A stretch of DNA of 5,530 bases from contig JAGDXH010000027.1 of assembly GCA_023256295.1 (NCBI GenBank), positions 1,774 to 7,303 of the forward strand. Direction: 5' to 3'. Each line of letters starts with the position of its first letter. Within the stretch, counting starts at the first letter, position 1. This document shows positions 2,121 to 3,521 of this stretch, in pieces. The position numbers were made by a program, and so were the translations under genes. The stretch comes from Thermoproteati archaeon (GTDB taxonomy: Archaea; Thermoproteota; Thermoprotei_A; Marsarchaeales; UBA168). The notes under the pieces are model-generated. The model had not been told where the DNA came from, did no database searches, and worked only from the letters and a program-made list of their open reading frames with translations.

Positions 2121-2711
2121 ATGCCTGTCCAGCAAGGTCTCAGGGAAGTCGACGCTCGGCTTTTGGGGTTGTTCAATGGAGGCGATGACCAGCTTTTTCA
2201 CGCAGCAGCTCACCTCCTTGGGGGAGGAAAAAGGATCAGGCCCACTCTGGTTCTCCTCTCTGCTTACTGCCTCGGGGGAGACGTCGGCAGGGCTGTTCAC
2301 GCTGCGACTGCCGTGGAGCTTCTTCATGTGGCGTCCTTGGTTCAAGATGACATAATGGACGGGGATGATTGCCGGAGGGACAGGCCCACTGTCCACAGGA
2401 TCTTCGGAGTCAACAAGGCAATCCTGGCCTCAGACCTCCTCATGCAAGGGGCCGTTAGGGAAGCCAACGCCTTGGGACGGCGGGTCGTGGCAGAGCTGGC
2501 CAGAGCTGCTTCCCTGCTGACCAAAGGACAGGACATGGACATTTCCATGAAGGACGTTCGCGTCGGCAAAAGGACTTACGAGAGGATGGCCATGCTGAAA
2601 ACGGGAAAGCTGATGGGTTGCGCGCTTGCCGAAGGGGCCATAGTTGCAGGCAGAAGAGGCAAGGAGATCGGGTTGATGAGGAAGGCAGGCGAACTCCGCG
2701 CGTCTCAGTGA
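2121..2711 (+). CDS. Polyprenyl (GGPP-type) diphosphate synthase, C-terminally truncated
   Basis: This is a trans-isoprenyl diphosphate synthase, the family that elongates allylic diphosphates with isopentenyl diphosphate to make archaeal lipid chains or quinone tails. Visible motifs in order are GGKRIRP at 35-41 (IPP binding), the first aspartate-rich motif DDIMD at 76-80 followed by RRDRPT at 85-90, KGQDMD at 135-140, and the KTG motif at 160-162. The family then continues with a helix and an FQ..DD..D second aspartate-rich motif. Here the protein departs after KAGEL (residue 192) into RASQ and a stop, at 196 residues instead of roughly 310-340. The second Mg-binding DDxxD and all C-terminal helices are missing, so an active enzyme is unlikely. 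Neither other frame downstream restores the motif. Ala71, at the fifth position before DDIMD, is small, which in this family often allows products longer than C20. ATG 2121 is the first start after an in-frame stop at 2076. There is no Shine-Dalgarno and no well-placed TATA box, so co-transcription with the upstream gene is possible. Confidence 0.88.
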   Translation: MPVQQGLREVDARLLGLFNGGDDQLFHAAAHLLGGGKRIRPTLVLLSAYCLGGDVGRAVHAATAVELLHVASLVQDDIMDGDDCRRDRPTVHRIFGVNKAILASDLLMQGAVREANALGRRVVAELARAASLLTKGQDMDISMKDVRVGKRTYERMAMLKTGKLMGCALAEGAIVAGRRGKEIGLMRKAGELRASQ

Positions 2712-3521
2712 GATTTGGTATTCGTTCCGAGCAAGGTCGAGCCTGTAGGCAACCGAGATTTTCAATGGAAGTTCTTGCAACATCACGTGCGCGGCCCTCC
2801 CCGTGAAGAAGTCTGCCTCTGCGGCCAGCCAGGAAAACCTGCCAGAAGCGGTCGGGCTGAGGCCCTGGATCTTGGATATGAAAGAGGACACAGCCTCGAT
2901 CTGCCTGAGGGCAGGCTGAACCAGCTCGGGGTCGTGGTAGTAGGGATCCCTTGCCAGCGCTTCTAGGAGGCGCAGCCTTTGCGCCTCGTCGTCCTGGACG
3001 AGGCCAAGAGTGAGCAGCGACGCCTCAAAGTAGGCAAGTATGGCATCGGCCTTCTCCATCAGGGGGGCTGCCAGCTTACCTCTTTCCATGTGATCTCCTA
3101 TGGCAGCGTAGACCGCGTACAAGAAATAGCGGGAAGGCAACAGGTCCTTCAGGTGATCGTAGGTCAGGACTCCTGCGCAGTCCTCTCTTGAATGGACAAC
3201 CGTTGTACCTGACTGAGCCAGATGGGTCAGGACCTGTGGGTCGTCTGGATGATGGTCGATGTAGATGACTTGAGCGCGGCGACCCTTTTCCATCATGGTT
3301 TTTTTGAAGGATGGCTGGGTCAGAGGATCGATCCCCAGATCAGCCACGTAAATCTTGTCTCCTTCCGCTTGGGCTATCTTCTCCAGGTAGTCGTAGTAGT
3401 CGGCGAACCGGACGGTCACAGAGTTTCCAGAGATCTCTTCGGCTTGCTTTATGAGAAGTGCCGACATCAGCCCATCCAAGTCGGCGATGTGCGATACCAC
3501 GTGAACGTGCATGAGATGCAT
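2430..3521 (-). CDS. DHH-family phosphoesterase, C-terminus lost and replaced by antisense read-through
   Basis: This is a DHH superfamily phosphoesterase (RecJ / NrnA / archaeal DHH-type), Mn-dependent enzymes that hydrolyse phosphodiester bonds in nucleic acids or nucleotides. Motif I is HIADLDG (His11, Asp14, Asp16), motif II is VADLG with Asp61, motif III is the DHH triad Asp89-His90-His91, and motif IV is IGDH with Asp143. A DHHA1-like C-terminal domain follows and reaches YQISLR at 268-273. Here the family normally goes on to a GGGH...AAG substrate-binding end. Instead, residues 274-363 are simply the antisense of the prenyl synthase gene, with no resemblance to any DHH protein. About 50 native residues are inferred lost, and no other frame restores them. 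The catalytic residues are intact, but substrate binding is probably impaired. The start could be ATG 3521 or ATG 3512 (MHVHVVSH), the latter nearer to typical family N-termini. The exact substrate cannot be named. The gene is divergent from the MFS gene. Confidence 0.85.
   Translation of the reverse strand: MHLMHVHVVSHIADLDGLMSALLIKQAEEISGNSVTVRFADYYDYLEKIAQAEGDKIYVADLGIDPLTQPSFKKTMMEKGRRAQVIYIDHHPDDPQVLTHLAQSGTTVVHSREDCAGVLTYDHLKDLLPSRYFLYAVYAAIGDHMERGKLAAPLMEKADAILAYFEASLLTLGLVQDDEAQRLRLLEALARDPYYHDPELVQPALRQIEAVSSFISKIQGLSPTASGRFSWLAAEADFFTGRAAHVMLQELPLKISVAYRLDLARNEYQISLRRAEFACLPHQPDLLASSACNYGPFGKRATHQLSRFQHGHPLVSPFADANVLHGNVHVLSFGQQGSSSGQLCHDPPSQGVGFPNGPLHEEV
2690..2711. other. Tail-to-tail junction of two truncated convergent genes
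   Basis: Prenyl-synthase sequence is recognisable up to about 2696 (KAGEL) on the plus strand. DHH-protein sequence is recognisable from the right down to about 2703 (ISLR) on the minus strand. The two meet within about 10 bases, with no intergenic space, no T-rich terminator and no repeat, insertion sequence or target-site duplication visible. Both genes lose their conserved 3' ends at the same point, so one event explains both: a deletion of roughly 0.5 kb or more, or an artificial join. Confidence 0.75.

What the first reader, a model, noticed from the sequence alone, without database searches (positions are those of the whole stretch)
2690..2711. Two convergent genes truncated at one point: deletion scar or chimeric join
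The prenyl synthase ends just before its second DDxxD motif and the DHH protein ends just before its GGGH-type C-terminal motif, and the two breakpoints coincide within about 10 bases. Intact convergent genes should have both C-termini plus a spacer here. Other frames on either strand do not restore the missing motifs, so a simple frameshift does not explain it. A single deletion or a clone/assembly join explains both losses. If real, it would inactivate an isoprenoid-chain synthase that is normally important for archaeal lipids, unless a second copy exists.
Basis: partly seen in the sequence, partly recalled or inferred. Interest (0 to 1): 0.7.

Follow-up and report, generated by a model that had tools for sequence, protein, structure and literature searches.

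The report
Deletion joining two convergent archaeal genes
In a draft genome of an archaeon, likely a relative of the acid-hot-spring genus Tardisphaera, two neighbouring genes that point at each other both lose their ends at one spot, likely because about 364 bases that close relatives are inferred to keep were deleted; since the genome holds a second, full-length gene for the same kind of isoprenoid enzyme, that loss is likely bearable.

Summary
The prenyl synthase matches its family up to base 2696 and the DHH protein matches its own down to base 2694, so the two meet on one CTC. Metagenome proteins about 95% identical keep both ends: P0001 (271 aa, second DDxxD) and P0123 (382 aa, GGGH). 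Their 3' ends can be written on opposite strands of one DNA with 0 of 138 residue conflicts over 209 bases, against 42 or more in the other registers tested. They very likely sit at one locus, overlapping tail to tail; in that register the window lacks 364 bases. No spacer is expected. The genes on both sides keep their order in a same-genus genome, which has other genes in place of the prenyl synthase. The missing ends were not found elsewhere in the readable genome. A second, full-length prenyl synthase exists. P0122, identical to the window over 273 DHH residues, reads past the seam but has its own 22-residue gap over GGGH, so the window's junction is likely not the only state of this strain. 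I favour a real, non-fixed deletion slightly over a library or assembly join; reads would decide. Ordinary; low interest.

The parts
2121..2696 (+). kept part of a short polyprenyl synthase gene (residues 1-192), with the first Asp-rich motif DDIMD at 2346-2360
   Evidence: PF00348 128.5 bits, profile 4-172/251; 182 of 192 residues identical to P0001
2697..2711 (+). out-of-family tail RASQ and stop, read on the antisense of the DHH gene
   Evidence: none of the 6 aligned relatives continues this way; on the minus strand the same bases encode DHH residues just before the seam
2694..2696 (.). seam: CTC is Leu192 of the prenyl synthase on + and Glu276 of the DHH ORF on -, so at most 3 bases of microhomology (inferred from the relatives' residues)
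   Evidence: the next residue in relatives is Ala or Phe for the prenyl synthase and Gly for P0122 and P0123, and none of their codons fits the window bases beyond the CTC
2694..3512 (-). kept part of the DHH-family gene (273 residues counted from MHVHV), with the DHH motif IDHH
   Evidence: 260 of 273 identical to P0123, 273 of 273 to P0122; PF01368 23.7 bits, under the cut-off of 28.1
2430..2693 (-). likely chance continuation of the DHH reading frame through the antisense of the prenyl gene; not a protein domain
   Evidence: follows no relative in the alignments

Best explanation
Bases 2694-2696 are the point where both genes stop matching their relatives, likely the seam of a true deletion of about 364 bases that is likely carried by only part of this strain's population and that took the 3' ends of two convergent genes together. 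Shown: both proteins match close relatives right up to the same CTC and then stop matching; the relatives' proteins keep both ends; the genes on both sides keep the order of a same-genus genome. Inferred from the dual-coding fit of the relatives' proteins: the intact genes overlap tail to tail by 209 bases, so one deletion hits both. Inferred: the join used at most 3 bases of microhomology, as in end joining or replication slippage. Predicted: the prenyl synthase without its second DDxxD and the DHH protein without its GGGH motif would be inactive, and the full-length synthase on contig C70 would cover the isoprenoid chain needs of the cell.
For: Intact relatives of about 95% identity. Dual-coding fit of P0001 with P0123: 209 of 209 positions and 0 of 138 residue conflicts, against 42 or more in the other registers of 200-218 bases, 39 or more for the control P0125, and at most 0.835 of positions in 200 shuffled tails. 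Missing length 364 in that register. Order of ATPase, glycosyltransferase, DUF354, MIPS-like, DHH and MFS genes as in G001. Missing ends not found elsewhere in G000. A join over 3 bases or fewer cannot come from a k-mer overlap (recalled), and the four gaps in this contig are each marked by 10 N, not joined silently. Direct-orientation joins under 10 kb are rare among MDA chimeras: 11 of 475 (PMC1855051, passages). In the sample the DHH gene is the only one of 41 ORFs cut by more than 36 end residues away from an edge. P0122, the same strain at protein level, has another gap in the same motif, which fits a region that is really losing DNA.
Against: P0122 reads past the seam and its tail fits the prenyl 3' end of P0001 at 208 of 209 positions, so the window's form is likely not fixed in this strain. 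The junction protein was found once, on the window's own contig (P0121). The contig has four 10-N gaps in 11 kb and the bin is 69% complete. The MDA paper also reports complementary bases at 90.9% of its direct joins under 10 kb, so short shared bases do not speak against an artefact. Two different gaps at one motif could also mean a stretch that is hard to sequence. The DNA of P0001, P0122 and P0123 could not be read.
Confidence: 0.5

Rival explanations
1. The join is an artefact: a chimeric library molecule or a local assembly error skipped about 364 bases, and the real genome keeps both gene ends.
For: A protein of the same strain (P0122) carries the DHH end and is compatible with the prenyl end. 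The junction was found once only. The scaffold is gappy. P0122 itself has a gap at the same motif, which fits a stretch that resists sequencing.
Against: The seam has 3 bases or fewer in common and no N run. No comparable loss away from an edge among the 41 ORFs of the sample. MDA chimeras of this direct short-range kind are rare (PMC1855051, passages). The retained flanks fold no better than shuffled ones (z 1.21; 179 of 200 shuffles at least as stable), though the missing stretch itself could not be folded.
Confidence: 0.43
2. The window joins two places or two organisms that are not neighbours (a true chimera), rather than deleting a local stretch.
For: The bin is a draft of 70 contigs, and G001 has other genes where the prenyl synthase sits here.
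Against: The intact proteins fit tail to tail on one DNA, and genes on both sides lie in the order of G001, so both flanks belong to one locus.
Confidence: 0.05
3. Both proteins naturally end here and work as short forms.
For: Both ORFs end in ordinary stop codons.
Against: The seven prenyl relatives aligned keep the three Asp of the second motif. Seven DHH relatives aligned (P0123-P0129) keep GGGH; only P0121 and P0122 lack it (the tenth hit, P0130, was not aligned). The DHH ORF beyond the seam is antisense of the neighbour.
Confidence: 0.02

Closest known systems
Microhomology-type deletion scar making two pseudogenes (general class; from own knowledge)
   Same: Both flanks collinear with a relative, one contiguous stretch missing, at most 3 shared bases at the seam
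   Different: Not shown to be present in source DNA, and likely not fixed in the strain
MDA chimeras (PMC1855051; abstract and passages seen)
   Same: Few shared bases at junctions
   Different: 85% of those are inverted; this join keeps orientation and spans under 1 kb, a class (direct, under 10 kb) of 11 of 475
Short polyprenyl synthase of Tardisphaera saccharovorans (P0002, 279 aa; name given by the source)
   Same: 59% identity over 97% of the window ORF
   Different: P0002 keeps the second Asp-rich motif and the C-terminus
DHHA1-domain protein of Tardisphaera miroshnichenkoae (P0124, 327 aa; name given by the source)
   Same: 44% identity over 82% of the window ORF, same DHH motifs
   Different: P0124 keeps GGTGGGH and the DHHA1 domain

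Membership tests
Polyprenyl synthase (PF00348), functional | match to the family profile | tested here: met
   128.5 bits against a cut-off of 27, profile 4-172 of 251
Polyprenyl synthase (PF00348), functional | first Asp-rich motif DDxxD | tested here: met
   DDIMD at residue 76
Polyprenyl synthase (PF00348), functional | second Asp-rich motif and C-terminal part | tested here: not met
   present from residue 201 of P0001; no frame of the window holds it
DHH-DHHA1 phosphoesterase | N-terminal DHH motif set | tested here: met
   D, H, H and flanking residues invariant in the alignment; but PF01368 at 23.7 bits is under its cut-off of 28.1
DHH-DHHA1 phosphoesterase | DHHA1 domain with GGGH | tested here: not met
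   PF02272 found in P0123, P0124 and P0125 but not in the window ORF or P0122
Genomic deletion scar | missing stretch present and contiguous in close relatives | tested here: met
   by the protein dual-coding fit, not by DNA
Genomic deletion scar | flanks collinear with relatives | tested here: met
   same gene order in G001, which however has a GalT-like gene and a 445-aa ORF where the prenyl gene sits here
Genomic deletion scar | junction present in source DNA | not testable with these tools
   no reads available

The most novel reading that the evidence does not exclude
The tail-to-tail overlap of the prenyl synthase and the DHH gene is a deletion hot spot: one strain is losing the DHHA1 substrate motif by at least two independent microhomology deletions (66 bases in P0122, 364 in the window), so the RecJ-like protein is being discarded, with the overlapping prenyl synthase as a bystander.
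Probability: 0.2. Interest if true: 0.4.

Novelty: new member of a known kind. Interest (0 to 1): 0.18.

Why it matters
Mainly as a warning: two gene losses inferred from this draft genome rest on one seam that another protein of the same strain does not share. If the two deletions are real, they would show how an overlapping convergent gene pair loses two functions by one event, and that a RecJ-like gene is dispensable in this lineage.

Tried and rejected
Frameshift: rejected, no frame restores the tails. Tails moved elsewhere in the genome: for the DHH tail only a DHHA1 paralogue at 38% identity on C67 (E 4.5e-6) and a weak match on C66 (E 0.04) rang; for the prenyl tail nothing rang, without a positive control in that search. 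Stretches that read N cannot be searched, so this is not absolute. Scan of named genomes with the prenyl alignment: 6 loci, best 42% identity, none a near relative. Scan of viral contigs with P0001: 13 stretches matched a pattern, none encoded a relative. Search of 229 genomes of the class with P0123: 18 with a match at 1e-20, none but the window's own above 48% identity among the rows shown. Hairpin at the seam: the flanks fold no better than shuffles. Terminator- or promoter-like sites in 2500-2900: none found. Papers: PMC1855051, abstract and passages; PMC12542729, passages and one section; PMC9795473, passages, which gave no rate for deletions of this kind. The other titles were seen in listings only; the search found nothing.

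Full report
What is in the window. The window is bases 1774-7303 of contig C9 (11,241 bases) of a 750,054-base draft genome in 70 contigs, 69% complete. A run of exactly 10 N lies directly on either side of it, and the contig has four such runs. It holds a DUF354 gene (-), a gene without a Pfam match here called MIPS-like, a polyprenyl synthase (+), a DHH-family gene (-), an MFS transporter (+) and the start of a further gene without a Pfam match. The labels MIPS-like, ATPase, glycosyltransferase, GalT and IPP isomerase are my reading of the sequences and come from no call.

The two ends. The prenyl synthase is 182 of 192 identical to P0001, a 271-aa protein whose cluster has 4 members, up to the Leu at 2694-2696. 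P0001 goes on as AGLAFQLRDDLMDW with the second Asp-rich motif; the window goes on as RASQ and a stop. The DHH protein is 260 of 273 identical to P0123 (382 aa, cluster of 2) and 273 of 273 identical to P0122 (360 aa, longest contig 1,644 bases), down to the Glu whose complement is the same CTC. P0123 goes on to GGDGGGH and a DHHA1 domain. Neither tail is found in any frame of the window or its contig.

How the genes lie in relatives. I could not read the DNA behind P0001 or P0123. But the last 209 bases of the P0001 gene and the last 209 bases of the P0123 gene can be one stretch read on opposite strands: every position is compatible, and an exact test over codons needs 0 residue changes of 138, against 42 or more in the other registers from 200 to 218 bases; the control P0125, a DHH protein of a more distant relative, needs 39 or more; 200 shuffled tails reach at most 0.835 of positions. 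The pair therefore very likely sits at one locus, convergent and overlapping. In that register the window lacks 364 bases.

Is it a local event? Same-genus genome G001 carries the ATPase, glycosyltransferase, DUF354, MIPS-like, DHH and MFS genes in the same order; between the MIPS-like and the DHH gene it has a GalT-like gene and a 445-aa ORF, where the window has the prenyl gene. Both flanks thus belong together. In a sample of 110,281 bases of G000 (18,536 of them in seven contigs that read wholly as N) compared with 272,884 bases of G001, 41 of 313 mechanical G001 ORFs had a best match of 40% identity or more; 32 were covered 85% or more and 9 less; of the 9, 6 end at the edge of a contig or of the stretch taken, two are small differences at the ends (36, and 11 plus 14 residues), and one is the DHH gene, whose G001 ORF has 151 residues beyond the match, only about 50 of them in the conserved DHHA1 end (the 50 is my estimate). 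ORFs containing X and matches under 40% identity were dropped before this count, and antisense shadow ORFs were not removed.

Real or artefact. For a real deletion: the seam is clean, shares at most 3 bases, carries no N, keeps orientation, and is the only such cut in the sample. Lasken and Stockwell (authors recalled; PMC1855051, abstract and passages) found 85% of MDA chimeras inverted and only 11 of 475 in direct orientation under 10 kb; they also found complementary bases at 90.9% of those direct joins, so short shared bases alone do not separate the two readings. Against: P0122, identical to the window over 273 residues, reads past the seam, and its tail fits the prenyl 3' end of P0001 at 208 of 209 positions. 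The same-strain population therefore likely holds the missing ends; that P0122 comes from the same population is inferred from protein identity alone. P0122 in turn lacks 22 residues that include GGGH. Two different gaps at one motif in one strain mean either gene decay, or a hot spot, or a stretch that is hard to sequence. I give a real, non-fixed deletion 0.5 and an artefact 0.43.

Consequence. A prenyl synthase without the second Asp-rich motif and a DHH protein without DHHA1 would be inactive (established knowledge of the families, not tested here). The genome keeps a 328-aa synthase on C70, matching PF00348 over positions 4-238 of 251, directly behind an ORF that looks like type 2 IPP isomerase. 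So lipid chains would not depend on the window's copy.

Who it is. The nearest relatives that bear a species name are Tardisphaera saccharovorans for the prenyl synthase and T. miroshnichenkoae for the DHH protein, thermoacidophilic archaea formerly called Ca. Marsarchaeota (PMC12542729, passages and one section). That the window's organism belongs to this lineage is inferred.

Noticed in passing
P0123 and P0122 (relatives of window 2694-3512, -): In P0123 the DHH reading frame runs about 55 codons past the usual end (325-327 aa in P0124 and P0127), antisense to the end of the prenyl synthase: a tail-to-tail overlap of 209 bases by the protein fit.
   Followed up: partly
P0122 against P0123, residues after VDL: The same-strain protein lacks 22 residues with the GGGH motif, in frame, within the stretch that the window has lost.
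   Followed up: partly
window 2121-2711: Best NCBIfam model for the prenyl synthase is the family 2 encapsulin cargo polyprenyl transferase (143.6 bits; 173.9 for P0001), far under the cut-off of 450; the Tardisphaera paper mentions particles resembling encapsulin compartments.
   Followed up: no
L065:6892-9237: G001 has a GalT-like gene and a 445-aa ORF, also convergent with its DHH gene and overlapping it, where the window has the prenyl synthase.
   Followed up: no
L065:10026-10027: The match to the DHH gene of G001 splits in two at a pair of N.
   Followed up: no
G000:C67:54-677: A DHH paralogue with a DHHA1-like end starts at the edge of contig C67.
   Followed up: no
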